From: Venturia oleaginea
Lineage: Eukaryota > Ascomycota > Dothideomycetes > Venturiales > Venturiaceae
NCBI GenBank assembly: GCA_013176395.1
Contig: JABMLP010000007.1
Coordinates: forward strand, 1,426,001 to 1,490,000
Direction: 5' to 3'
DNA: 64,000 nt
A program made the translations under genes and the position numbers. The notes under the pieces were generated by a model. That model did not search any database. It was given only the letters and a program-made list of their open reading frames with translations, and was not told the DNA's origin. Below, one piece after another: positions 3,361-51,143 of the stretch. Positions within the stretch are counted from its first letter, which is position 1. The number at the start of each line of letters is the position of its first letter.

Positions 3361-4039
3361 GTTGACGCACTGATTGGCCTTGGGTACGTATTTTCTTGCT
3401 TTTCTCCTTCTCCCTTTTTGCTTTTTCTAGGTTCCAGCAGCGGATCGATGCGAGAAGCACAGATAGGGATTTTGAGCATTTTACTCCGCATACGGTTACG
3501 GTTTCCGCTGGTTTCGGACTGGAGTGATGGACGTTATGGTTGGCTGGATACGCGTTTGGTGAAGACAGGCATTCGGACGGATTCTGGGGCGCGATTTTCT
3601 GAACGAATGAAATGTTTTTGTAGTAAACGCATGGAGAAAGAGCAAGGAGCGTTTCCTGGCAAAGCTTGTCAGCATAGTTGGCAGGATTTTAAGGCCAGTT
3701 GATTGGGATTGGGAAGCCGCATTTTCGATAGACTATCTCGTGGTTTCCGGGCTCAGTTCGCGCGTTGGAGGCCTTCGCATTATACAGGCTTCAAATGGTA
3801 CGCGTTCTGCTTTCTAGCTTTATTTCCATACCGCAATTCATCATCCCTTTATCGAGTAACTTAAAACAGTTTCACATGTTCATTCGAGGATTGACATCAT
3901 TAGGTTTCTAGCGGAATGATTCCAGAAATGTGCCAGACACTGACCGATATCGATACTCTTTTTAGAAAGACCATGTAAGCTTGCCGAAGAGACGAGGCAT
4001 GGGAATTGTATCCAATCTTTCTGCCGTGTCGGGCCCGCT
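3361..4039. other. intergenic between convergent genes
   Basis: This lies between the 3' ends of the 1615-3360 gene and the minus-strand thioesterase, so it probably holds both 3' UTRs. No coding signal was seen. Confidence 0.5.
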
Positions 4040-18140: not shown

Positions 18141-18566
18141 GACGGGCGACCATCATAAACTCAATCTTGGCACGTTTCGATCGTGGAGGAGACGAACCTC
18201 GCTGATCGGAGTATTTTATACAGAAGAATTGTATCGGACATGATCGGATACGCAAAGAGACATAGATGCGGGAGTAGATCTCGTGCTGATGAACGGCTAG
18301 GCACAGTTCCGGAGATGACGCTATCTTATAGAGTCCATTTCCTATAAAATGGTGTTAAGGAGCACAACTGTTTCTCAAATCAGGGCTCCCAGTTGATTCA
18401 AAACCCACGTTCTGCGCCCGGCAATATTCCAATGGGAGAGACTAATTGTGGCAAAGCGTGCCATGCAATGAGCGAGACTGTAACCGGATTCAAGCCGTGC
18501 CGTTTCGAGCTGCGTCTGTTGGCGAGGACAATCATTGTTGTTGATTTCCTTTGAGAACACTATTAC
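18141..18566. other. flank of the copia insertion, no gene seen
   Basis: No coding signal. The last five bases (ATTAC, 18562-18566) are the target-site duplication of the adjacent retrotransposon. Confidence 0.5.
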
Positions 18567-18757
18567 TGTCGTATCCTTGGCACCGACAGGGGCGGTGCAA
18601 TTTCTGCATCTCAAGGATACTTCAATGTTCGAAGAAGAACAAGAACAATCAAGAATACAAGAGACTTATCCATATATGTTTATTTCATTATCATTTCATT
18701 ATCGTTACATTATCATTTCATTACTATTTCATACACGTGTACAAAGCCGATCCAACA
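18567..18757 (+). repeat. 5' LTR of the copia element
   Basis: 191 bp, TGTC to CAACA. Near its start are nested inverted repeats: GTATCCTT (18571-18578) pairs with AAGGATAC (18613-18620), and GCACCG (18580-18585) pairs with CGGTGC (18593-18598). It has one more 22-bp ATTATC-type unit than the 3' LTR. Confidence 0.93.
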
Positions 18758-18934
18758 CTGATCAGTGGTTGCAAGGCGACCACAGATTAGCAAGAATCCA
18801 ATTTTCCGACAATTGTATGAAACTCCCGCACTGCAGGAGACTATTGTACAACCCACGAATCACGTATCGCACAACGGATACAATTCACTTAGATCTATTT
18901 GATCTAGAACAAATACGACATTGGAACCCGCACG

Positions 18935-21900
18935 ATGTCTCAACTACCAATCGGAGCATTCCAAGCGAGCAGTTCTACACCAGCAGGCCCGGCAGTCCCA
19001 AGGAAGTTCAAACCGAAAGGGAAAGAAATTGAGCTATTACAAGAGGAGAAGCCAGAAGAAGAACCAATACCTCTATTTACGGAGATCGCACAAGATACTG
19101 GAATACCAATCAATATCCTAAAGAAGCATCTCAATCTACACAATTGGTGGGCAGATATCAACCCAGAAACGGAACCAGAGGAGGCAAACTTGACAACTTA
19201 CCTTGTACGAAACTATATCGACGTAAAGCGGGCAGGAATTACAAAGAGGAATCTACTCGGAGAGCTGCGCGATGTTTTCTACGGATGGACAAATTATCAG
19301 TTTGGACAGATTAACAAACGTTTCATACGAATGTTGATTCAACTCTGTCAAGACAGGCAAATTACAATCCGAGATGAGCCCGGCTGTACGGCTGCAAACC
19401 AGATGATGTATGTACTTGGGGACTCCATTCCACCAACACCCCGTATTGAGGAGAGTTTGGTGGAACAGCAGAGCCCAACTACAGACGAATCTGTTAGGCT
19501 ACGGCTACCGACAATAGAACATCCAGTTCGCGCAAAGCAGGAGTTGGTAGGAGAAACCCTATCAGGACTCTCCGTTCGACAGAAAGGAACTCTCTCTCCA
19601 GTGGTGGAAATGCCGAGATTTCAACCCCAGATTGAGGAGAGAACTCAATCCCAGAGACCTGAGAACGCAGTACGGCAACCTCAACACCAAACCCAACGTC
19701 CTCAATCCTCTTGGCCTACTGGCATACAACAGAAGAATTGGGAAAGAGGCCGTACGAAGGAACTACCTCAATTTCAACTACCGAAGCAACAGCAGCAGCA
19801 GCCTCCCCAAGGTTGGTTTGTACAACCACAAGGAGGAGGAACCAGTGGAGGAGAAGGAAATGGCGGAGGGGGACTATCAGGCCTACCATTAGGTTCTGGT
19901 AGCTTTGCACAAGGTCCCCCAGACCCATTAGGAGGAGGATACAATTCTCAAGGCGGAGGATATTCAGGTGGAGGGGATGGAGGCTCGTACGGAGGACCAG
20001 GAGCACTACCAACAGGATTACCAGCAGGACCGCCAAGACCACCAGGACCGGATCCATACGAACTTCCCCCTACAAGATGGATCCCAAATGCCTTTATCGA
20101 CCCTCGTGCGATCGCTGCTTTCTCAAAAATATGGAAAAAGGAGAGATGCTACACCGGTGAGCCGTACGACATTCTACAGGAGAAGGTGAAGCTGTTTATC
20201 ACTCTCTGCAGGCGACTCCAGATCTATGAGAACCAGTACCATGCTGTCTTCCCCGACATTCTTACCGGACGTGCAGAGACATTTTACCTTGACCATATTG
20301 GACCAGATATGAGATGGGACCAGATCTATCGTGCGATGTATAACAAATTCAATACCAGTCAAAATCACGCAATCTACTACGCAGATTGGACAACAACCTC
20401 GTTCGCACGAACAAGATCTGAGAACCCTGATAAGCCACTTCCCGAAGTGCTCCAGATTATGCTAGATAAGCTCCAACTTGTCCAACGCGCAATGGGAGAA
20501 CCGTACAAAGGCGAGATACACCTCAGTACAGCTGTTACCAAGGCATGCAAAGGCGTACGAGAGCTGGAATCCGCATTCCTACGCCCAAGCACATCGTGCG
20601 AGAACTTGTTTGCAGAGCTCCGGTCCGCCCTTCAACTCTATATAGATCGGAAATCTACAAAGCAATTCTTTACAAGAGAAGGGCAACCCCAGCTACCACG
20701 GCCCTCGCACGAAGCAGATCAATTCTTCAATGACAGGAGATTCCGAGATAATAGTAAGCGAGGAACACCTACTCCGTCGTACAACAGAGGCCAGCAACAA
20801 TGGCAGCCAAGAATAGATCCCCCGCATGAGGCGAATTCGGGACAGCAATCTTATCAACAACCATGGCAGAGATCCAAGAAACCATGGCAACCTAAGCCAT
20901 TTGCTCGCACGGGAGGGAAAGGTTGCTGGATCTGCAACAAACCAGAATGCCGTTCCTGGAAACATACACCTGAGGAGCAAGCTCGCACGAAGAAGCAGTT
21001 CTTTACGGCAGTAGATGAAGCTGACATGGAACTCCCAAATGACGAGGAAATCCGACAATTCATAGTCTCGTACGAAGGTACCTATGAACAGTTCCTAGCT
21101 TCCCAGGACGAGGAAGAAGACAAGGGACAACAAGTGGTTTCCTACCTAACCACCGCTGCATTCTACCACCGTACAACAGGAGAGGATATCTACGGCCAGG
21201 GAGAACCGTCAGTACGTGCGGAACAGTTTATCCTTGAAAGCAAATATGCCAAAGCATACCAAGGTGAACTTTGGGACACAGGCGCCGCACGAGTCTCTAC
21301 AGTTGGGAAATGTCAGGTTGAAGCATACCTCCGAGAGTTCCCTCGTACGAAGATTGATTGGACACCTGGTAGTGCCCATATCTCGTTTGGAAGTGGACCA
21401 CCTACTGCGGCAATTGGTACGATAGAAATGGAGAACCCTCTTGGCAAGATCACCTACCACATCTTGGAGACAGACACTCCATTCCTCTTCTGCTTGGACG
21501 AAGGAGACAGGCTGAAAGCCTACTTCAACAATGTTAACAACACTATCGTACGAAAAGATGGATCTACAATCCCAGTCGTGCGAAAATGGGGACATCCTTT
21601 CTTCAATCTCAGCCAAAGAGAAGCCACATCATTCCTAACTGAGACTGAACTTAGGAGAGTCCACAAGAGATTTGGCCACCCTCGTACAGAACGCCTACAC
21701 ACTCTCCTCAAGCAAGCTGGCTATACGAATGTTGAAGAGTCCGTGCTAGAACAGATCCGGAAGGTGTGCCATCAATGTCAATCGCACGACCAGGCCCCAA
21801 GAAGATTCAAGTTCTCCATCCAGGATAACTGCGAGTTCAACTACGAAATTATTATCGATGTAATGTACCTCGATGGTAAGCCAGTTCTCCATGTGATTGA

Positions 21901-22822
21901 TGCAGCTACGTCTTTCCAGGCAGCTACCTTCCTGAAATCGATGTCTGCACGAGACACCTGGGATGCTCTCTGCAAATGCTGGATCTATGTCTACCAAGGA
22001 CCCCCAGACAACATTATACACGATCCAGGAACCAACTTTGCGTCCGAAGAATTCAGGAACTTCGCACGAATTGTTGGAACCTCGTGCGAAGAAATGCCTG
22101 TTGAAGCCCATCATACTATAGGGAAGATTGAGAGACAACATGGACCGCTAAGGAGGGCGTACAACATCCTTTTAGAGGAGATTGGCCATCGTACGGACAA
22201 AGAAATAATCCTCCAGATGGCAATCAAAGCTCTCAATGATACAGCAGGACCGAATGGCATTGTTCCAACACTTCTTGTATTTGGAGCATACCCCAGAATC
22301 AACCAGGACTCACCACCATCTCAAGACATTGTCGCACGAGCTGAAGCAGTTCAAAAGGCTATGAAGGAGATCAGAAGTATTCGCGCAAAGGTTGAAGTTA
22401 ACCGCGCAATCAATGCACGCAATGGACCAATGCTTCACCATATCCTCACCCTTCCATTGAGAAGTAAGGTAATGGTTTGGAGAGAGAAGAAAGGCTGGCG
22501 AGGCCCATACAAGATCGACGCCTTTGAAGGTAACAACGTGATACTTGCCCTTCCAAATGGACCAACGCAATTTCGTGCGACCCAAGTCAAGCCTTACTTT
22601 GAGGACATACTGGAAACACCTCCAGAGCCATCGTACGATAGCCCTAACGAGCTAGACTCACCACCAGGAAGCCCTCAACACCAAGAAGAAGCCCGTACAA
22701 ATTCAATCCAAACCCAGCGCAGGAGCGGGAGATCAAACCAAGGCCAACTCCCTGGGTACCTGGAGGAAAGCATTGTCTACCTTTCTAAGAAGGAACAGGA
22801 TGACCTTGCGCTTGCCGTATAA
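18935..22822 (+). CDS. copia Gag-protease-integrase polyprotein (1295 aa, ends at UAA)
   Basis: Starts at ATG 18935. The first 380 residues are Gln/Pro/Gly-rich Gag sequence. A CCCH-type knuckle variant lies near residue 665 (CWICNKPECRSWKH, C-x2-C-x4-C-x4-H). The aspartic protease motif is LWDTGAARVSTVG near residue 780. The integrase zinc-binding region has HKRFGH and later CHQC. The integrase core shows VMYLDGKPVLHVID, IHDPGTNF and IGKIERQHGP, supplying the D, D and E. The frame stops at TAA 22820-22822, followed directly by CTA. The downstream frame is the same phase and stays open through reverse transcriptase, so this is the upstream part of a normal copia polyprotein interrupted by one stop codon. 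Confidence 0.93.
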   Translation: MSQLPIGAFQASSSTPAGPAVPRKFKPKGKEIELLQEEKPEEEPIPLFTEIAQDTGIPINILKKHLNLHNWWADINPETEPEEANLTTYLVRNYIDVKRAGITKRNLLGELRDVFYGWTNYQFGQINKRFIRMLIQLCQDRQITIRDEPGCTAANQMMYVLGDSIPPTPRIEESLVEQQSPTTDESVRLRLPTIEHPVRAKQELVGETLSGLSVRQKGTLSPVVEMPRFQPQIEERTQSQRPENAVRQPQHQTQRPQSSWPTGIQQKNWERGRTKELPQFQLPKQQQQQPPQGWFVQPQGGGTSGGEGNGGGGLSGLPLGSGSFAQGPPDPLGGGYNSQGGGYSGGGDGGSYGGPGALPTGLPAGPPRPPGPDPYELPPTRWIPNAFIDPRAIAAFSKIWKKERCYTGEPYDILQEKVKLFITLCRRLQIYENQYHAVFPDILTGRAETFYLDHIGPDMRWDQIYRAMYNKFNTSQNHAIYYADWTTTSFARTRSENPDKPLPEVLQIMLDKLQLVQRAMGEPYKGEIHLSTAVTKACKGVRELESAFLRPSTSCENLFAELRSALQLYIDRKSTKQFFTREGQPQLPRPSHEADQFFNDRRFRDNSKRGTPTPSYNRGQQQWQPRIDPPHEANSGQQSYQQPWQRSKKPWQPKPFARTGGKGCWICNKPECRSWKHTPEEQARTKKQFFTAVDEADMELPNDEEIRQFIVSYEGTYEQFLASQDEEEDKGQQVVSYLTTAAFYHRTTGEDIYGQGEPSVRAEQFILESKYAKAYQGELWDTGAARVSTVGKCQVEAYLREFPRTKIDWTPGSAHISFGSGPPTAAIGTIEMENPLGKITYHILETDTPFLFCLDEGDRLKAYFNNVNNTIVRKDGSTIPVVRKWGHPFFNLSQREATSFLTETELRRVHKRFGHPRTERLHTLLKQAGYTNVEESVLEQIRKVCHQCQSHDQAPRRFKFSIQDNCEFNYEIIIDVMYLDGKPVLHVIDAATSFQAATFLKSMSARDTWDALCKCWIYVYQGPPDNIIHDPGTNFASEEFRNFARIVGTSCEEMPVEAHHTIGKIERQHGPLRRAYNILLEEIGHRTDKEIILQMAIKALNDTAGPNGIVPTLLVFGAYPRINQDSPPSQDIVARAEAVQKAMKEIRSIRAKVEVNRAINARNGPMLHHILTLPLRSKVMVWREKKGWRGPYKIDAFEGNNVILALPNGPTQFRATQVKPYFEDILETPPEPSYDSPNELDSPPGSPQHQEEARTNSIQTQRRSGRSNQGQLPGYLEESIVYLSKKEQDDLALAV

Positions 22823-24249
22823 CTAAGGCAAGACGGGATTATTACAACACCAGGTCCCCCATTCCAGGAATCAGATCTCAGCGAAGTTGATAACCTTATC
22901 AACCAAGATGTCTTTGAAATCATCTTGTACGATGAAAAGAAGCATGGGAAAGGAGAGATCTTTGGTACAAGGTTTGTCCATGAGGTAAAAGGAAAAGGGA
23001 TCGCACCGTATGAGAAGTCAAGACTTGTCGTACAAGGATTTGGAGACAAAGGAAAGGAAGAAATCCTTACCCAATCGCCAACAATCCAAAGGATGAGCCA
23101 GAGATTCCTTCTTGCAATTGGACCTACCTTGATTTCCTACTTCAACGCCCAAGGAGAACTGCGAGATATTACCCAAGCTTACACCCAATCAAAGGACGAA
23201 CTGGAGCGAAAGATCTTCGCACGACTCCCAAAGGAAATGAAAATGTTCTTTCCAAAAGGGACCCTCCTTCTCATCAAGAGACCCTTGTACGGATTGGCTG
23301 AATCAGGACTCTACTGGTTCAAAACCTACCACTCCCATCATGTTAAGAACCTGCAAATGAAAATCTCATCGTACGATCCATGCCTCCTTCACACAAACTC
23401 AGGACCTCAAGACTTTGGAATTACAGGACTTCAAACGGACGATACTTTCAGCTTTGCTACCCCAGAGTTCTCCCGGCGGGAAGAGGAAGAACTAAGCAGA
23501 GCAACTTTTCGTGCGAAAGGAAAGACAATTCTTGCAGAGGATCAACCTATTGAATTCAATGGAGGGAGGATCCGCATAGAAGGACCTGATATTCTCTTTG
23601 AACAGAAAAACCAATCCGACCGACTTGAGTTAATTAACCCTCGCGCGAAGGATGCACAGCAGAGGTACGTCGAGCAACGTGCGAGAGGCGCATATATTGC
23701 TTCAACATGCCAACCCGAAGCATCGTACGACCTCTCTGTTGCAGCACAAATCAAGGAACCAACAGAGAAGGATATTGAGAAACTGAACACACGAATCCAG
23801 TGGCAGATGGACAACAAAAGACGAGGACTCAGATTCATCCCACTAGACTTCGCACGATCAAAGCTGTACGCATTCACAGATGGATCATTTGCAAACAACC
23901 AAGATCTTAGCTCCCAGCTAGGTTTCCTTATTGTTCTCGCTGAAGAGGTCTATTGTACAGAAACTGAATTTGAGATCCAAGGCAACATTATCCACTGGAG
24001 CTCAACTAAATGCAAGAGAGTCACTCGAAGCGTGCTGGGAAGCGAATTGTACGGAATGACAACAGGATTTGACAACGCTATCGCTATTAGTACGACCCTC
24101 CAACAGGTTACAGCATCCCTCGGGCTCGCACGAATTCCCCTTGTCCTCTGCTCAGACTCTAAGTCGTTGTACGACTGCCTTGTAAAGCTCGGAACAACAA
24201 CTGAGAAACGCCTCATGATTGATATTATGTCAATTCGAGAGTCGTACGA
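20104..24249. repeat. array of TCGYRCGA octamers inside the copia coding region
   Basis: By eye I count 24 exact TCGYRCGA sites. They start at 20104, 20329, 20403, 20594, 20705, 20983, 21068, 21343, 21546, 21576, 21782, 22062, 22082, 22332, 22573, 22631, 23217, 23369, 23509, 23641, 23723, 23850, 24126 and 24242. One-mismatch relatives occur throughout and extend upstream to the Gag start codon (CCGCACGA, 18928). Chance expectation for 4.1 kb is about 0.25 sites. The sites fall 9, 7 and 8 times in the three codon phases, so no common peptide explains them. The centres are TA (7), TG (7), CA (9) and CG (1). The function is unknown. Confidence 0.85.
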
Positions 24250-24409
24250 GAACAGGGAGATTTCCCAAATCCGCCGAATCAATGGGAAGGACAACCCAAG
24301 TGATGCCTTTACAAAAGGAAGCCCTAACGCTGCACTAGAGAAACTGATCTCTACCAACAAGCTTACAGTGCAAATGGAAGCTTTTGTTGATAGATATGAG
24401 GATCTGTAG
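22823..24409 (+). CDS. copia reverse transcriptase-RNase H region, in phase after the UAA
   Basis: The frame continues without another stop from 22823 to TAG 24407-24409. The first internal ATG is at 22925. Reverse transcriptase landmarks are FGTRFVHEVKGKG, SRLVVQGFGDKG, KRPLYGLAESG and LQTDDTF; the last replaces the usual YVDD box, as in other fungal copia elements. RNase H shows the four acidic residues in AFTDGSFANN, GSELYGM, CSDSKSLYD and NPSDAFTK. Expression would need readthrough of the UAA, an undetected start, or the stop is a mutation in this copy. The domains are otherwise complete. Confidence 0.9.
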   Translation, partial: LRQDGIITTPGPPFQESDLSEVDNLINQDVFEIILYDEKKHGKGEIFGTRFVHEVKGKGIAPYEKSRLVVQGFGDKGKEEILTQSPTIQRMSQRFLLAIGPTLISYFNAQGELRDITQAYTQSKDELERKIFARLPKEMKMFFPKGTLLLIKRPLYGLAESGLYWFKTYHSHHVKNLQMKISSYDPCLLHTNSGPQDFGITGLQTDDTFSFATPEFSRREEEELSRATFRAKGKTILAEDQPIEFNGGRIRIEGPDILFEQKNQSDRLELINPRAKDAQQRYVEQRARGAYIASTCQPEASYDLSVAAQIKEPTEKDIEKLNTRIQWQMDNKRRGLRFIPLDFARSKLYAFTDGSFANNQDLSSQLGFLIVLAEEVYCTETEFEIQGNIIHWSSTKCKRVTRSVLGSELYGMTTGFDNAIAISTTLQQVTASLGLARIPLVLCSDSKSLYDCLVKLGTTTEKRLMIDIMSIRESYENREISQIRRINGKDNPSDAFTKGSPNAALEKLISTNKLTVQMEAFVDRYEDL

Positions 24410-24583
24410 TACGCTAGTTGAACGAAGGAGAGTAGTTGTTGGTTTGAGTGATTTTATTGTTGGTTATTTAGGAAAGAATGAGTTGGAGAGTAGGAGGAAG
24501 GTCTGCATTATCGGGGCCACCTCTAGAGTCACATGGAGCGCAACACCATCACGACTTGCATCACGACAAGAAAAGACTCCCAG

Positions 24584-24752
24584 TGTCGTATCCTTGGCAC
24601 CGACAGGGGCGGTGCAATTTCTGCATCTCAAGGATACTTCAATGTTCGAAGAAGAACAAGAACAATCAAGAATACAAGAGACTTATCCATATATGTTTAT
24701 TTCATTATCATTTCATTACTATTTCATACACGTGTACAAAGCCGATCCAACA
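24584..24752 (+). repeat. 3' LTR of the copia element
   Basis: 169 bp. Identical by eye to the 5' LTR except that it lacks the 22-bp tandem duplication. Directly followed by the ATTAC target duplication at 24753-24757. Confidence 0.93.
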
Positions 24753-43378: not shown

Positions 43379-46300
43379 ATGCCTCATTCCAACCGAGATC
43401 CCAATGTCGGCGGACGCAATAGCAGAGCATCCAACATGTCCAACGGATCCAGAGTACCCGCCAGACCTTCTCCAGCAATGACAAAAGCAGACCAGCTTGC
43501 AAGTGCACCAGGTGTTATGAGCATGCTTCGGAGCTCTACTGAACTGGGGACCGATTCACTGATGATGCCGGGACCACGCTTCGCAGGCCACAACAATCGT
43601 CCACCGGTGCAGAATCGACATAGTGGCGGTGCTACTTCTCGCATGTCAACAGGATCAGGTCGCTCCCAGTCATCCAAGCGAACCTCGACCCACAAGCAGT
43701 GGCCGTCGGTCTCCTCGGCCGGTCGTCGACGCTCCATCACAAGCAATTTCAGCAACTTGAATGTACCGCACTATCTGGACACAATGCCGCCAAGTCTTGC
43801 CAACCTGTCTGATCATACGATACATCCTCCTCCTGCCCCACACTTCAGAGACGGTGGCCGTTCTCTTTCTTTGACCAATTCGACTCATCCGCCGACAGGC
43901 CTTACCAACTATAGGTCTATGACGAGCTTACGCGGAAATGAGCAGCCTTACCAGAGACCACGATCGCCATACAAGTATCCTACACGACTCAAACGGCCTG
44001 GGTATCGTCCATCATCGCCAGCACTGAGTGATATGAGTGGGATTGGATCCTCAAAGGCACAGCACAACAGGCTTGGATCAGGTCTTCGTATGGCTCACCC
44101 AGGACTACACTCTCACCATGGTCCGTACAATTACGGAGGACATAATTACCATCCCCAACCCCATATGCAAAGACCTGGACCCTCATACGCTGGTCTCAGG
44201 AACCGTTCAATTCACTCCGTGCATTCTGTGGGTACGGTAGATCGAATGCCTGGGACCTTTCCACCGTCATTGCCTGGTTCGCGTCAAGGCACACCTTCGA
44301 TTCCTGACCACCCTCTCCCGGCTTTGATACCAACGCATCCGCTATCTGCCCAATATGGCGCTTCCTCATCCGAACCATCATCATCCAGTCCTCAGACACC
44401 CAGGGATATGCCACTGCTGCCTGAGAGCGAACCATCCATCATGCCGAACAGGCCGATGCCGCGAGAACATTCCTCCGCTTCTGCAAATGCTCCAATCTAC
44501 TACGACTACAGCGAGCAGTTTGAGGAGTCTGAACAGATGGAGAAACATATCATTCAGACCTACCAAGAGACCACATCTGCCCCCATACCAATGGGCTTTG
44601 TTCATCGCATCAAAACGATACTGGAAGACCGAGGCATGACGGCTACTCCTGCTCATTACACTCCCACGGCCAGTTTTCTTCAGCTGCCAAATAGCGAAGT
44701 GCATGAGCTTCCCGCAACCCCGGTATTGCAGAGAGTTACACGGGACTTGATCCTCGCCCATCTTGAGGCTCCTAGCTCTCGCGGTCAGCAATCCGAACCG
44801 CAGAGTCAGGTTCCTAGTCATCATGTTGATTTTCGCACTTCCGACTTGCGTGAAGCTCCACAGTCCACCGTTATTCCTCCTAGTGGTCAACCAGAGAGCA
44901 CAACTCAGGGCCACGAAAAGCAGGGAAGTGCTAGCTCAGAGGTCGTCTCATATAGATCTAGCACAACCACCGCAACTGTTGCCATTGACTACGCCTTGCA
45001 CTACTCCATGCCCATGTCCACCACAAATTCTCTTCACTCCAACATGGATATTTTCATGCCGGGTGATCAGACAGATGAAGAATCAGATCCAGCTTCTGAG
45101 GGACCGAATGAGCCTGTCACGATTGTCACTGCTGAAGTCGAGGTAGCTGCTCCTACGCCGACTCAGGTCCATTGGGCTCCTCGATTCCAGACTCCTATTG
45201 ATAGCAGCCGAGCTCAGTCGGCATTTGTCCCAAGCTCGATCTTCTCAGGCGCACCAGCAGACTCAAGCGGCAGATATTCCACTCCTGCCACGCGCAATGA
45301 TTGGATGTCTTCTGAGCCTACAGATTTTCCTGTAGTGGGCAAGCCCGAATGTGTCAAGCTCCCAACCCCTCCTAACGTTCCCTCGAGCGTTGCACCTGCC
45401 GAGCCAAGCCATTCGCCCCCACCGACGCCTCATATCGCAGTTGAGCAGCCAACGCAGGAGCTCGACATGAGATCTCCAGTGTCACCTTTAGCCGAAAACG
45501 ATAGTCTTTCAGTTCCCTTGCAAAATCTTAGCCCTGTCAGTCCTATGGTAAACGCGGACCATGATGCCAACAAACGTGATAGCAACACAACGACCCACCT
45601 GACGGGTATCTGGTCGAATAGAAAGTCCTTGGCCACGGGATCCGAAAGTCCTGCCAGCTCGAGCACACGAATGAGTTTAAAGGAAGCTGAGCCTGTCAGG
45701 GAGCAGAGCCCAGAGCACAATAGCGTCACAGACCTGCGGTTTTCAATTCTACGCCCGCTGACCCGACCTTTGGATGATGTTAAGGAAGAACCGACCCTTG
45801 AAAACAGTGCGATCGATCTCAGGGCCGCAAGCTTCAAGTTTCCCTTTCCACAGCGGAAATCTTCAATGGCACACTTCGAGGAGTTCAGAATCTCTCGCGA
45901 GTCAAGAAGGCACGCCTCTGAAACTTCAAGCAAAGATTCTGCCTTTCGACATAGATCTCGTGCTATGTCGGAACAGCGTCCAATCACAATATCGCGTCCT
46001 CCTTCTGGTACTTTGAGCCTTGCTGACATGCGAGCAATTCCGTCTTTGAACTTCAGTCGCGTTGATCTGTTTGCGAAATTGAATGAGGAGCTCGGCATCA
46101 AACCCGCTGAAGAGTTGTCTGGCCAAGTTGTTCCGGAAGAAAAGCGCCCGCGATCTTCTGGTAGAATGCGAGAAAAGTATCGAAGCTTTTTCCAGAGTCT
46201 CGAGGAAATGACCAATCAGACCATAGCTCAGATCGAGATCAACAGACAGAGCAGAGATCTCGACGACGATGATGGATCCAGGGTTAGAAGCTGTGTCTCC

Positions 46301-47680
46301 CGAATCTCGCGACCTTTTTCACCTGATGATCTGATCGCTGAACTCGATCGGATTTCCATCCCTTCTATCAATGGACTTACCCAGAGACTTTCCGAGCTTC
46401 TCCCGTCACTCAAGCGCTACTACGGTGAAGAAGGGGAACCTCTGGACGATGATGAAACGATTAAATCAGCACTAGACGAGATACGACGACTAGGAAGTCA
46501 GGTGCCCTCTTCCTTGTTTGAAGTTTCTTTTGAAAGCGAACTTACCTCGCCTGATCATTCGAAAGGTGCGACTGAATTGTCCATCGTCGCCGAAGAGAAC
46601 ACTACAGGCTCGACTGTCAATACGCGAAGCATCAGACCCAGATCTGCATCTTCTCCAGATAACAACACTGTCATCTCGATTGCCGAGCTCGAAGCGCCGT
46701 CTCCAGCAGTTCTCCGCTCACGATCTTTATCAGACAGCCAGGCTACTGGCGCTGTCTTCAATAACATGGAGGTTGCTGTGCGAAGTTCGATGCGATCGCT
46801 ACGAAGTTCTCCAGCTGAATCCAGGCCTTGGAATCTCGACACCAGCTATCCTTGGGCTTTGGACGCTCAAAATGTCGACATCAGTCTTCCCGCACCTGTG
46901 CTTCGTCGAGATGCCATCCGACCAAGACCATCCAAGCTCAGGATGCGCGATGATGTCTGCGAGCCCGGTGATGTATGCGCAGATCTAGGTAGTATTATAA
47001 CGGGAGGAATGCATGAAAATCCCAACCAAAGTACAGGACCCTCGGCGGATACTTTCAATACTTTTAGTACCACTCGGCGAAAGATGAGCAAGCGAAGCAT
47101 TATGGGATCCATTTCACGTAAGATTGGCCTCAAGACATCCATCGACCACAGTGGCTTCGCCATTGGCCCAGACATTTTGCGTGGCGAGGAACGTGCTGTT
47201 GACCCTGGTGATCGGTATCCTACAACAGGTCTTTCCCCACCATCAGCTCTCAATATTGACGAAGTACGCAGCTTCTTCTCCGACGATAGTTCCCACCACG
47301 ATGCGAGTGCTCGGGGAGTGAGCTTTCGGAAGCGCTTCACCAATTTCAAGACAAAACTACCACCTATCTCAAGGGCTCATTCAGCCATGGAACATCGCAG
47401 TACTCCAGTTCAAGTGCCCGCTATTCATCGTTCGAACTCACTGTTTGTTTCCCATGACGGCTCGTCGCGGTCGATGGATGGCAGTACCGCTGTAGCCTAT
47501 GGTGATGGTGTTGGCATGCCAAAGACGGAATTCAGGGCTAAGAAATTGGTCGAGCGGATGAAGACTCTCTGGTACAAAGGAGGGGAGCTATTCAGATCCT
47601 TCAGCAAGAAGAAGAAGCCGACCGGGGTACAACATGATTGGGACTCTTCTGGTGAAAGTGCACATTGGTCCAATGACTGA
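43379..47680 (+). CDS. large Ser/Pro-rich, mostly disordered protein (1433 aa)
   Basis: One uninterrupted frame from ATG 43379 to TGA 47678-47680. Composition is Ser, Pro, Thr and Arg-rich with low-complexity stretches (SSEPSSSSPQTP, HSPPPTPH). Short predicted helices occur at MEKHIIQTYQE, FAKLNEELGIKPAEEL, KYRSFFQSLEEMTNQTIAQIEIN and DLIAELDRISIPSINGLTQRLSELLPSLKRYYG, suggesting interaction motifs in a long tail. The C-terminus is basic (RAKKLVERMKTLWYKGGELFRSFSKKKKP). There is no signal peptide, membrane helix or enzyme motif. The many Ser-Pro sites point to a phosphoregulated scaffold, which is inference. I do not recognise the family. Similar in style to the next gene downstream. Confidence 0.8.
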   Translation: MPHSNRDPNVGGRNSRASNMSNGSRVPARPSPAMTKADQLASAPGVMSMLRSSTELGTDSLMMPGPRFAGHNNRPPVQNRHSGGATSRMSTGSGRSQSSKRTSTHKQWPSVSSAGRRRSITSNFSNLNVPHYLDTMPPSLANLSDHTIHPPPAPHFRDGGRSLSLTNSTHPPTGLTNYRSMTSLRGNEQPYQRPRSPYKYPTRLKRPGYRPSSPALSDMSGIGSSKAQHNRLGSGLRMAHPGLHSHHGPYNYGGHNYHPQPHMQRPGPSYAGLRNRSIHSVHSVGTVDRMPGTFPPSLPGSRQGTPSIPDHPLPALIPTHPLSAQYGASSSEPSSSSPQTPRDMPLLPESEPSIMPNRPMPREHSSASANAPIYYDYSEQFEESEQMEKHIIQTYQETTSAPIPMGFVHRIKTILEDRGMTATPAHYTPTASFLQLPNSEVHELPATPVLQRVTRDLILAHLEAPSSRGQQSEPQSQVPSHHVDFRTSDLREAPQSTVIPPSGQPESTTQGHEKQGSASSEVVSYRSSTTTATVAIDYALHYSMPMSTTNSLHSNMDIFMPGDQTDEESDPASEGPNEPVTIVTAEVEVAAPTPTQVHWAPRFQTPIDSSRAQSAFVPSSIFSGAPADSSGRYSTPATRNDWMSSEPTDFPVVGKPECVKLPTPPNVPSSVAPAEPSHSPPPTPHIAVEQPTQELDMRSPVSPLAENDSLSVPLQNLSPVSPMVNADHDANKRDSNTTTHLTGIWSNRKSLATGSESPASSSTRMSLKEAEPVREQSPEHNSVTDLRFSILRPLTRPLDDVKEEPTLENSAIDLRAASFKFPFPQRKSSMAHFEEFRISRESRRHASETSSKDSAFRHRSRAMSEQRPITISRPPSGTLSLADMRAIPSLNFSRVDLFAKLNEELGIKPAEELSGQVVPEEKRPRSSGRMREKYRSFFQSLEEMTNQTIAQIEINRQSRDLDDDDGSRVRSCVSRISRPFSPDDLIAELDRISIPSINGLTQRLSELLPSLKRYYGEEGEPLDDDETIKSALDEIRRLGSQVPSSLFEVSFESELTSPDHSKGATELSIVAEENTTGSTVNTRSIRPRSASSPDNNTVISIAELEAPSPAVLRSRSLSDSQATGAVFNNMEVAVRSSMRSLRSSPAESRPWNLDTSYPWALDAQNVDISLPAPVLRRDAIRPRPSKLRMRDDVCEPGDVCADLGSIITGGMHENPNQSTGPSADTFNTFSTTRRKMSKRSIMGSISRKIGLKTSIDHSGFAIGPDILRGEERAVDPGDRYPTTGLSPPSALNIDEVRSFFSDDSSHHDASARGVSFRKRFTNFKTKLPPISRAHSAMEHRSTPVQVPAIHRSNSLFVSHDGSSRSMDGSTAVAYGDGVGMPKTEFRAKKLVERMKTLWYKGGELFRSFSKKKKPTGVQHDWDSSGESAHWSND

Positions 47681-48314: not shown

Positions 48315-51143
48315 ATGCCTCAAGGCAGCAAAGGATGGAATCTCCGTCGCAATATTAAGAAGTGGTGGGCGGGTCGTTTGACGAAGGATAACATCGAGGG
48401 CGGTCTACGAAAGCAAAAGGACTTCCACGAGCGTGGGAGGATACACTCGTATCATGCAGGCATGAGCCATCAGGGGCAGAGCTACATGGACCACAAACCT
48501 ACCTCAACACCATTCGACGATACGTCGACACTCTCCCACCAGGCCAGTACCATGACCATGGGGTCTGATTTCCGCACTGCTGCATTACAACCCTCGCTTT
48601 CTATGATACCCAGTTTGCAACAAGCACCGTACGCCAGATCTACCCACCTAGGTCTGGAGGACTTCGGCCCGTCTACAATGACCGCTCCGCAAAGTGCTGT
48701 AATATATGGTGATCACCGTCAGGAAAATCGAACAGATTGTTACGACAGCGGACATTCCACATCTTGTAGCTCCTCCCAGCAGTCCAAGAGAAAGGTTGAG
48801 AATCAGAAGAACAATTGTGAGACCTTGGTCGAAGTATCCTCTAGCACTACATTTGTCGAGGGGTCGATAAATGTTGGGCCCGACAGTAGTGGCACTCCGG
48901 TACTCCAGAATGTATCTGAAGTCTCAGCGGATGTTTCGCGGTCCTTGAGTGCAAAAATCCTCGGCAGTAACGGATCGCTCATCGAAACTGATGGTTCCGG
49001 CATTGCTACACGTGTTCACACTTTGCAGTCGCCTGAGTTCAGGCCTCCTTTGACAATCAGGAATCTTGTCGACCTCGAGGATGCCGAGGCCTGCCGCGCG
49101 GAGCCTTCGATCTCAGCAGAAGGACGCTCTCCCCTTTCCAGAACTCCCAGTCAGATGACAGCCGTCAGTAGGACGAGTTCAAAACGATCCGGAAATGCCG
49201 TGAAGACCTCATCACAATCATACCGGAGATACAGGGGTCAAAAAAGCAGGTCTGAGCAATTGCTTGCACGCGAAGCACAGGTTTTCGAACAGAGGCGCAA
49301 GGAGATTCAGCGCTTCATGGTGGAAGAAGAACGGCGTGCCTCACTGAGTACCAATCTGAGTGCAGGGTTCTACCAACAGCCCTCAGAAAGTCTAACATCC
49401 CTAGGTAATCCCAACAGTCAGTCCTATGGATATCATCGACATTCCACGTTAAGTCTACCTGCCCTCCAAGACTCAATCAGCTATGCAACATTGCCACTTA
49501 TGGGCAAGGCGTCGGGAGGAAATTCACCATCCCCAGACCATACAGAAATTCACTATGCCCAGTCAATGCAAGATCTTTGCAATATGAGGATGAGTCCAGT
49601 GGATTATGATACCCGATTCAGCCAGTCATTGGATAATCAGCTGGAGCACCAATTTTGGGAAAGAAGTGCCAGTAGAGCTCACGTCGACGCTCGATCGATC
49701 CGCAGCACAAGTCGTGTTGACGCTGGAGACCAAGCTTCTATTCGAAGCCATCATTCTAGAACTCCTCCGATACCCTCTTCGCTCCACAGTGTGCCACAGC
49801 GACCTTCTCCCGACCCATCGCCCCGTCATCTCCGATATCCCGGCGGTCCGACGCCTTTACATACCTGGAATAACACTGCCATGAACAGTCACAGCTCTGG
49901 ATCAGACTCATCTTCTAGACCTTTTACAGGCTTTTCAGGAGAATACACACATGCTCAAAGACCTCATACGGTGATGTATTCTGCATCAGGCTACCAGCCA
50001 GAGGCTGACTATCCCAATCACGACGGCTATACACAGCTTGGTGGTTACGATCACCCTCAGTACTCGCAGTCAACACCGAACTTTGGCGGTCCTGCCTCTA
50101 TCGTGAGCATGTCTTCGTATTCCCATGGTCCAAATCCCAACCCATATGTTGCTGCCAACGGTCCGCTTGTGAGAGATGTTATGACACCATCTGCTCCACC
50201 AAGAGGACAAAGACGAGATCCCAAGGATATACCAAGATTGCAATGTGTGGCTAATGTCAACATGGCTGTTAGTTGGGATGCCAATGGTGAACCGATTGGT
50301 TGTCATTACGAAAATCCTGAAGAGTCGGTCATCAAGCGGTGGCAAGGTGGTGTCCATGCTGTTGAAGAGCTGAAGAGACAGAAGAGTATGAGGGCGGGAA
50401 GTTTGAGAGGTGGACGGGAGAAGGGACGACCTGTGAATTGGAGGAGTTCAAGTCGGCTTCATGGGACTATTCATGAGGAAGAGATGTTTGTGCCTGATGG
50501 AAGGGGGTTATATGGATATGTGTCTAGAGGGCAGGGGGAGGGGAGGTTGAGCGGGAATGGGACCAGGCCGTCGGTGAGTTTATGGAATTGTCTATGATGC
50601 AATTTCAAGCACCTGTATTTTCTTCCTCGACTTCATATACCCCTCACCTGATCCACCACCTGCTAACCAAATCTCTCACACTCACAGCTCCTCTCAACAT
50701 ACACCACCCCAACTTCCAACACCAACGACGAGACAGCAAACCTGCAAAAACAAATTGCCAACCGTCGTTCCCACGTGTATTACCCACAAAACCGCCCTTC
50801 ACAACCCTTCGGACAATTAGGTCTCCAATACTCCCACATCGAACGTGAAAAAGCGCGTCGGGTTGAAAAACAACGAGAGGCGGAACGGAAGGAAAGGGAG
50901 GAGCAGATGAAGAGTTTGAAGGAGGAGGCGAGGAAGCAGGTTATTGAGGAGATGAATTTTGAGTTTGTGGAACAGAGAGAGCGGGAGAGGGAGAGGGAGA
51001 GGGAGAGGGAGAGAGGGGGGAGAGATGTGCAGGAGGGGAAGAGGATGAGCGTTGTTGTTGAGGAGGGGGATGGTGCTGCTCCGACGACGTTGACTGTAAG
51101 GAAGAGGTTTAGTGGGATTTGGGGTAAGAAGGGGAGGGAATAA
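48315..51143 (+). CDS. Ser-rich protein with C-terminal charged coiled coil (904 aa)
   Basis: Exons 48315-50573 and 50688-51143, with a 114-nt intron (GTGAGT, TGCTAAC branch, CACAG), in phase 0. The N-terminus is basic and Trp-containing (KGWNLRRNIKKWWAGR). The centre is Ser/His/Tyr-rich and likely disordered, with one charged helix (LLAREAQVFEQRRKEIQRFMVEEERR). Near the end of exon 1 is a small conserved-looking block (RLQCVANVNMAVSWDANGEPIGCHYENPEE). Exon 2 encodes a long Glu/Arg coiled coil with a GAGAGG repeat (about 50980-51018) and a basic end. No known domain recognised. Skipping the second exon would lose the coiled coil. Confidence 0.8.

What the first reader, a model, noticed from the sequence alone, without database searches (positions are those of the whole stretch)
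20104..24249. Dense TCGYRCGA octamer array laid over a copia coding region
At least 24 exact copies of TCGYRCGA lie in 4.1 kb where about 0.25 are expected by chance, plus many one-mismatch copies reaching upstream to the Gag start codon. The sites are split 9/7/8 over the three codon phases and encode unrelated residues (S-Y-E, R-T, V-R, S-H-E), so protein function cannot explain them. The palindrome-compatible form, the double CpG and the spread over 20-586 bp suggest sites for a DNA- or RNA-binding factor: packaging, silencing or anti-silencing, or a self-recognition tag. A known parallel is the concentration of short VANC-binding motifs in Arabidopsis VANDAL elements. I noticed no exact copy elsewhere in the window but did not search it exhaustively.
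Basis: partly seen in the sequence, partly recalled or inferred. Interest (0 to 1): 0.92.

Follow-up and report, generated by a model that had tools for sequence, protein, structure and literature searches.

The report
Palindrome array inside a fungal retrotransposon
A jumping gene in a scab-type fungus carries dozens of copies of one short mirror-image DNA word spread evenly through its protein-coding part, and DNA-type jumping genes in the same genome carry the same word, which points to docking sites for a DNA-binding protein that the elements have been selected to collect.

Summary
The array is real and stronger than reported. The window holds exactly 24 TCGYRCGA, all in one LTR retrotransposon (18567-24752). 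Synonymous codon shuffling gives 1.7 (maximum 8 of 5000). The protein permits the octamer at only 34 positions and 24 carry it; shuffled versions of the protein permit 8.6. The relaxed motif TYGYRCRA gives 59 sites of at least 7 bits, spaced far more evenly than random placement, also in the non-coding leader, none in the LTRs. The element is a fungal GalEa Copia in a Venturia relative. One diverged relative (C23, 42% identity at fourfold sites) keeps 22 of 43 sites as class members and has ten others; C3/C9 relatives have none in the aligned parts. Fot1/pogo-type DNA transposons (B, and its ~50%-identical cousin D) are enriched in the same motif; two other such cousins are not. Best reading: binding sites of a dimeric, probably host-encoded, DNA-binding protein, accumulated because binding helps the element. 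Factor and benefit are inferred; an RNA-level role is the main rival. Among near-identical genomic copies the sites change at the neutral rate. TCGTACGA is also the core of a dothideomycete promoter element whose repeats raise transcription.

The parts
18562..18566 (.). 5' target site duplication ATTAC
18567..18757 (+). 5' LTR (TGT...CA, 191 bp); no site >=7 bits
18758..18790 (+). Conserved Hairpin Site of fungal GalEa elements: CHSeq1 CTGATCAGT 18758-18766, CHSeq2 ACAGATTAG 18782-18790
18758..18934 (+). non-coding leader with 3 motif sites >=7 bits (18813, 18844, 18867); a fourth (18928-18935) overlaps the start codon
18935..24409 (+). Gag-Pol frame (one stop at 22820-22822 in this copy; the frame is open in some other copies); 24 exact TCGYRCGA, 55 sites >=7 bits
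20104..24249 (.). span of the 24 exact TCGYRCGA sites
20924..20965 (+). Gag zinc finger C(2)C(4)C(4)H typical of fungal GalEa
24584..24752 (+). 3' LTR (169 bp); no site >=7 bits
24753..24757 (.). 3' target site duplication ATTAC

Best explanation
The internal region of this fungal GalEa Copia element carries about 50-70 evenly spaced binding sites (TYGYRCRA, best TCGYRCGA) for a homodimeric, sequence-specific, double-strand DNA-binding protein. Selection acting on the elements gained and kept the sites, even at the price of amino-acid changes. Since Fot1/pogo-type transposons of the same genome carry the same motif, the protein is most likely host-encoded, and binding along the element body probably benefits the element by keeping it open or transcribed (anti-silencing or intragenic activation). 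Shown: density, phase independence, even spacing, retention by class with turnover, sharing between TE classes, no enrichment in several other families looked at. Inferred: DNA level, dimer, selection as the cause, host origin. Speculative: the benefit.
For: 24 exact sites against 1.7. 24 of 34 protein-permitted positions carry the word; the protein permits 34 against 8.6 (sd 2.9, max 18 of 100) in shuffled versions, and of the 21-30 permissive positions aligned to each of six homologues only 2-7 are permissive there. Sites in the non-coding leader, none in LTRs or tail (5.35 expected at CDS density, P 0.005). Even spacing: A, 59 sites, CV 0.52 against 0.97, 0 of 5000 random placements; B, 13 sites, CV 0.34 against 0.89, P 0.0004. 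C23 keeps 22 of 43 sites against 18.8% pooled over 191 control motifs. Own sites >=7 bits against synonymous nulls: C23 32 against 7.2 (max 16 of 1000), C43 12 against 2.3 (max 7), C6 13 against 3.2 (max 9). Class-preserving double change, e.g. TCGCGCAA to TCGTGCGA at 22381. In transposon B the same word ranks first of 256 patterns and 11 sites >=9 bits lie in 1811 bp, Poisson 4e-13; D has 7 sites >=7 bits in about 0.8 kb. Close pairs genome-wide against the reversed-pattern control: 23/6, 50/0, 124/12, and 33/8 for TYGTACRA. CpG o/e in the element outside sites 0.54, rest of window 0.91. TCGCACGA/TCGTGCGA 9/7. TCGTACGA is the core of the 19-bp Pseudocercospora fijiensis promoter element whose repeats go with raised expression, also in a promoter swap.
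Against: No factor is identified; no binding, chromatin or expression data exist here. Near-identical copies show no constraint at sites (45/3177 against 428/36123). Identity at fourfold positions is not clearly higher inside sites (C23 16/31 against 170/401, C43 6/10 against 89/182, C6 4/12 against 78/183). C23, C43 and C6 share stretches and are not independent. B's ORF alone is only weakly above its own synonymous null (8 against 4.2, max 10 of 1000; its 88%-identical relative L069 7 against 3.0, max 8). D has only 2 exact words, level with two other patterns. B and D are Fot1-type cousins and may share one origin of the motif. The absence in C3/C9 is not significant by itself (null 1.2 and 1.0). 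In the relaxed set the middle dinucleotide leans CA over TG (16/7, P 0.09). The spacing null is random placement, not placement limited to protein-permitted positions. The promoter swap does not isolate the palindrome.
Confidence: 0.5

Rival explanations
1. The sites act in RNA: a host RNA-binding protein, or pairing of self-complementary octamers, aids export, stability or packaging of element transcripts.
For: Sites lie only in the internal transcribed region, leader included, and even spacing would suit RNP coating. Some asymmetry is visible: in the C23 rows eight sites begin with CC and one ends with GG (hand count); CA over TG 16/7 in A.
Against: Reverse-complement forms of the exact word are used about equally (9/7), and the CC/GG asymmetry is not seen in B (1 against 1). 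A DNA transposon, which has no RNA packaging, shares the motif.
Confidence: 0.17
2. The word is the recognition site of a TE-encoded protein, e.g. the B/D transposase, used by B for itself and exploited by the GalEa elements in trans.
For: B encodes a DDE_1 transposase with Tc5-type and Psq helix-turn-helix domains; dispersed transposase sites are known in other transposons (recalled).
Against: Sites run through the whole body of B, not only its ends; two Fot1-type relatives 50-51% identical to B have just 1 and 2 sites >=7 bits in 1.4 kb; no reason is seen why a Copia element would need them.
Confidence: 0.12
3. The sites shield the element against a mutational or methylation process (RIP, CpG methylation): bound sites stay unmutated while other CpGs are lost.
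For: CpG depletion outside the sites (0.54) with dense CpG inside; TCG/TTG interchange is common among aligned variants.
Against: Mere retention does not explain the excess of permissive peptides or sites present in relatives where A scores below 7 bits. By eye the substitution spectra of the nine compared copies show no dominant RIP-like CpA bias.
Confidence: 0.1
4. Host defence factor sites: a repressor recognises the word and silences the elements.
For: Arrays restricted to a few TE lineages fit a defence specificity.
Against: The elements should lose such sites; here 24 of 34 permitted positions are filled and the protein permits more positions than its shuffles or most homologues.
Confidence: 0.06
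5. Chance, codon usage or protein constraint.
For: Only the weak B-ORF null.
Confidence: 0.01

Closest known systems
VANC21-binding motif arrays of Arabidopsis VANDAL21 (PMC5735166; abstract and sections 8 and 9 read)
   Same: Short motif highly enriched in one TE lineage, rare elsewhere as arrays, variable between related families; density seems to matter.
   Different: VANC21 sites are mainly non-coding, directional, in one orientation, often spread by tandem repeats and bound by a TE-encoded protein. Here the word is palindromic, mostly inside coding sequence, with unlike flanks, shared by a retrotransposon and DNA transposons, and no extra gene is seen in the element.
Fungal GalEa Copia elements (PMC5445492; passages and section 10 read)
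   Same: LTR ends and size, 5-bp TSD, Conserved Hairpin Site, C(2)C(4)C(4)H zinc finger, KSRLV-, QTDD, CQPEA.
   Different: No such array is described in the passages read; a word search of the held main text for CGTAC, GTACGA and TCGTACGA finds none.
19-bp TCGTACGA-cored promoter element of Pseudocercospora fijiensis Pfcyp51 (PMC6637983 abstract and passages; PMC6797121 passages)
   Same: Same palindrome, same fungal class, more copies go with more transcription.
   Different: A tandem promoter repeat of one gene; no factor is named in the passages read; not known to act in transposons.
MoIsw2 palindromic ChIP-seq motifs in Magnaporthe oryzae (PMC11481914; passages and section 8 read)
   Same: A host chromatin factor linked to palindromes in TE-rich DNA.
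   Different: The motif letters were not seen; few ChIP sequences held more than one motif, and most hits are intergenic.

Membership tests
Fungal GalEa Copia | LTRs 5'-TGT...CA-3', 138-311 bp, 5-bp TSD | tested here: met
   191 and 169 bp, ATTAC on both sides
Fungal GalEa Copia | Conserved Hairpin Site with A/A mismatch directly after the 5' LTR | tested here: met
   CTGATCAGT and ACAGATTAG, 15 bp apart; pairing worked out by hand
Fungal GalEa Copia | C(2)C(4)C(4)H, KSRLVI, QTDD, CQPEA, ADxxTK | tested here: met
   CWICNKPECRSWKH, KSRLVV, QTDD, CQPEA, SDAFTK; KSRLVV and SDAFTK each differ from the published form by one residue
Fungal GalEa Copia | RT phylogeny inside the GalEa clade (FunCo8) | not tested
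   no tree built
VANC-type anti-silencing system | Family-enriched short motif array | tested here: met
VANC-type anti-silencing system | Motif mainly in non-coding DNA, directional, by tandem repeats | tested here: not met
   palindromic; 55 of 59 sites >=7 bits wholly in the CDS; flanks of exact sites unlike
VANC-type anti-silencing system | Element encodes the binding protein | tested here: inconclusive
   only Gag-Pol is seen; Pfam finds rve, gag_pre-integrs and RVT_2; the first 175 residues have no PDB relative by sequence
VANC-type anti-silencing system | Loss of methylation over the element | not testable with these tools
   no methylation data
Fot1/pogo-type transposon (element B) | DDE_1 plus Tc5-type HTH between terminal inverted repeats | tested here: met

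The most novel reading that the evidence does not exclude
Transposons of both classes in one fungal lineage have converged on one DNA password: an evenly spaced palindrome array, written over their own coding sequence, that recruits a host regulator to the whole element body and lets it escape silencing or be transcribed. The code drifts between lineages (TCG...CGA to TTG...CAA), as would suit a reader that takes TpG and CpG alike.
Probability: 0.3. Interest if true: 0.93.

Novelty: new variant of a known kind. Interest (0 to 1): 0.82.

Why it matters
If true, selection for protein-binding sites has shaped a mobile element's protein sequence, and TEs of different classes share one access code for a host factor. 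That would make anti-silencing in fungi directly testable with a defined 8-bp word, offer a way to find the factor biochemically, and warn that codon-based tests on TEs can be confounded by overlapping DNA codes.

Tried and rejected
Chance, codon usage and protein function: rejected by shuffles. Duplication of a longer repeat unit: flanks of the exact sites differ. Helical phasing: of seven periods tested on successive spacings the largest nR2 is 3.46 at 10.0 bp, not convincing. A general habit of this genome: the total of 58 TCGYRCGA per Mb equals the Markov expectation of 54-65 taken from the rest of the window. C3/C9 GalEa relatives first looked as if they had words of their own, but these are 22-bp tandem repeats, probably in their LTRs. 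Viral-contig scan for relatives: 3 pattern matches, none confirmed. Rfam at gathering threshold: none. PDB sequence search with transposase B and with the Gag N-terminus: none. In one search the maxima among the 191 controls (42 sites in A, 31 in C23, 22 shared) suggest that a near copy of the motif is among them, so 18.8% retention is if anything too high. No structure prediction and no tree were run. Searches of the held papers for the word or for such arrays; in what those capped listings and the passages read show (40 of 194 papers listed) nothing describes the array.
Full report
What is there. The window lies in an unnamed 46.08-Mb genome in 61 contigs. A glycoside hydrolase gene in the window is 90 and 88% identical to Venturia inaequalis and V. 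nashicola proteins, the closest named hits; Venturia belongs to the Dothideomycetes, so the host is a Venturia or a near relative. The array lies in an LTR retrotransposon at 18567-24752 with a perfect 5-bp target duplication ATTAC, LTRs of 191 and 169 bp, the Conserved Hairpin Site of fungal GalEa elements, the fungal-GalEa zinc finger, and KSRLV-, QTDD and CQPEA (the defining features are from PMC5445492 section 10). This copy has one in-frame stop at 22820-22822; copies with an open frame exist.

The count. One search finds 24 exact TCGYRCGA, all at 20104-24249; codon shuffles that keep protein and codon usage give 1.70 on average, maximum 8 of 5000; phases 9/8/7; only 34 positions of the protein permit the octamer, and 24 have it; of the other ten, seven carry a form with one or two changes and three have three or more. 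The protein is itself unusual: shuffled, it permits 8.6 (sd 2.9, max 18 of 100). Of the 22 homologues, 11 were scored the same way: nine lie at most about 1.1 sd above their own shuffles, most of them below the mean; P0001 (20 against 10.7, max 18) and P0006, from Magnaporthiopsis (10 against 5.8, max 11), are raised. Of A's 21-30 permissive positions aligned to each of six homologues, only 2-7 are permissive there too. So residues of this lineage allow the word where relatives' residues do not.

The relaxed motif. Iterating a symmetric matrix from the exact sites gives TYGYRCRA with 69 sites at >=5 bits, 59 at >=7 and 47 at >=9; densities 11.2, 9.5 and 7.6 per kb against 1.8, 0.68 and 0.21 in the rest of the window. 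Of the 59, three lie in the 177-bp leader, 55 in the CDS, one across the junction, none in the LTRs or in the 175 bp between stop and 3' LTR (5.35 expected there at CDS density, P 0.005). Spacing is even: no starts closer than 20 bp, CV 0.52 against 0.97 for random placement, 0 of 5000. This does not depend on the matrix: the plain class YYGYRCRR has 54 sites in the element and 33 in the other 57.7 kb, CV 0.47; the exact word alone has CV 0.66, P 0.025. The null places sites at random and does not model protein limits.

Relatives in the genome. The nine near-identical copies compared keep most sites but change inside sites as fast as outside: 45/3177 against 428/36123, P 0.27. This fits inert insertions and does not speak for selection on single copies. 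Between lineages it differs. In the C23 relative (71.5% nucleotide identity over the aligned part, fourfold positions 170/401 identical outside sites) 22 of 43 covered sites remain members of the class, against 18.8% pooled over 191 permuted palindromic motifs, and ten further sites lie where A scores below 7 bits. Synonymous shuffles of the relatives' own codons give 7.2 (max 16 of 1000) against 32 observed in C23, 2.3 (max 7) against 12 in C43 and 3.2 (max 9) against 13 in C6. These three share stretches and are not independent. The C3 and C9 relatives (54 and 52% nucleotide identity) have none in the aligned parts, against nulls of 1.2 and 1.0, so their lack is not significant alone. In the C6 and C43 loci the leading palindromic word is TTGYRCAA (4 and 3 copies; TCGYRCGA 0 and 2). 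Single fourfold positions inside sites are not clearly more conserved: what is kept is class membership.

Other transposons. One search lists the first 100 of 2679 sites, to 1.289 Mb of contig C1; grouped at gaps of at most 1100 bp they form six clusters of three or more: one is this family, five are element B, one of these together with its cousin D. For three of the B clusters the assignment rests on match letters printed, not on fetched sequence. B is a 1.8-kb element with inverted repeats and a DDE_1 transposase with Tc5 and Psq helix-turn-helix domains. B holds 13 sites >=7 bits (11 >=9; Poisson 4e-13), the 3190 flanking bp hold 4; TCGYRCGA ranks first of 256 palindromic patterns in B as well (6 copies); spacing CV 0.34 against 0.89, P 0.0004 for sites >=7 bits, 0.015 for >=5 bits. 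B's ORF alone is only weakly above its own synonymous null (8 against 4.2, max 10), perhaps because the motif shapes the short ORF's codon pool. In the 88%-identical relative L069, 6 of 8 sites stay in the class. D, about 50% identical to B (102 of 205 residues), has 7 sites >=7 bits within about 0.8 kb, though only 2 exact words; by hand mapping two of its sites fall on homologous codons of B and others do not. Two further Fot1-type copies, 50-51% identical to B, have 1 and 2 sites >=7 bits in 1.4 kb. Pairs of the exact word genome-wide against the reversed-pattern control: gap 0-30 23/6, of which 17 are this family; gap 50-80 50/0, of which 45 are this family or B; gap 115-145 124/12, where the listed part is all this family or B. 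TYGTACRA pairs at gap 85-115 give 33/8. The remainder includes a diverged Copia-like place on C15, a 23-bp tandem array on C17 and a few singles. Families looked at without enrichment: the C3/C9 GalEa relatives, another Copia group (L054-L060, mostly 1 site >=9 bits in 3.6 kb, one with 3) and the two Fot1-type copies.

Reading. Palindromic form, near equal use of TCGCACGA and TCGTGCGA, coding and non-coding location and sharing with DNA transposons point to duplex DNA bound by a symmetric dimer, and to a factor not private to the element. Filling of permitted positions, lineage-specific residues, gain and class-wise retention in relatives and even spacing point to selection for coverage of the element body. 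That the factor is host-encoded and that binding helps accessibility or transcription is inference. One independent hint: in Pseudocercospora fijiensis, also a dothideomycete, TCGTACGA is the core of a 19-bp promoter element, and a promoter with six repeats raised expression when swapped in (PMC6637983 abstract and passages, PMC6797121 passages); the swap does not isolate the palindrome. The TCG/TTG equivalence among variants would suit a bZIP-like reader that takes methyl-CpG and TpG alike; this is recalled knowledge and untested.

Compared with known systems. VANC21 arrays (PMC5735166 sections 8 and 9) are the nearest functional parallel but are directional, mainly non-coding, often tandem-born and read by an element-encoded protein. 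The MoIsw2 study (PMC11481914, passages and section 8) reports palindromes in TE-rich DNA, letters not seen. I found no description of a coding-sequence palindrome array shared between TE classes in the searches named under Tried and rejected; the library lacks most subscription journals.

Noticed in passing
G000 C12:5742-12675 and C32:103471-110406 (L006-L009, L026-L029): On two contigs the same layout of two truncated A copies in inverted orientation whose 3' parts meet in the middle, as if one inverted dimer had been duplicated.
   Followed up: no
G000 C17:6506-6582 (L066 707-783): 23-bp tandem array, each unit beginning with TCGTACGA or TCGTACAA, near a contig end, with only short frames around; resembles the layout of the Pfcyp51 promoter repeats.
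   Followed up: partly
L019 about 236-310 and 3594-3690, L048 about 410-490 and 2154-2300: GalEa relatives on C3 and C9 carry 22-bp tandem repeats (GCAAGCTGTCATGTTCTATTTT), probably in the LTRs, and show no enrichment of the octamer.
   Followed up: partly
C23, C6 and C43 relatives (L013, L021, L037): C23 and C6 give identical site rows in Gag, C23 and C43 nearly so in RT: mosaic, recombined subfamilies.
   Followed up: no
window 18677-18746: The 5' LTR is longer than the 3' LTR through a short imperfect repeat of ATTTCATTATC units.
   Followed up: no
G000, listing: The 3' part of transposon B recurs very often: most of the listed pairs (a capped part of 124) are B.
   Followed up: no
window 43379-47680 and 48315-50597: Two long open frames (1433 and 760 aa) without Pfam match at E 0.001.
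   Followed up: no
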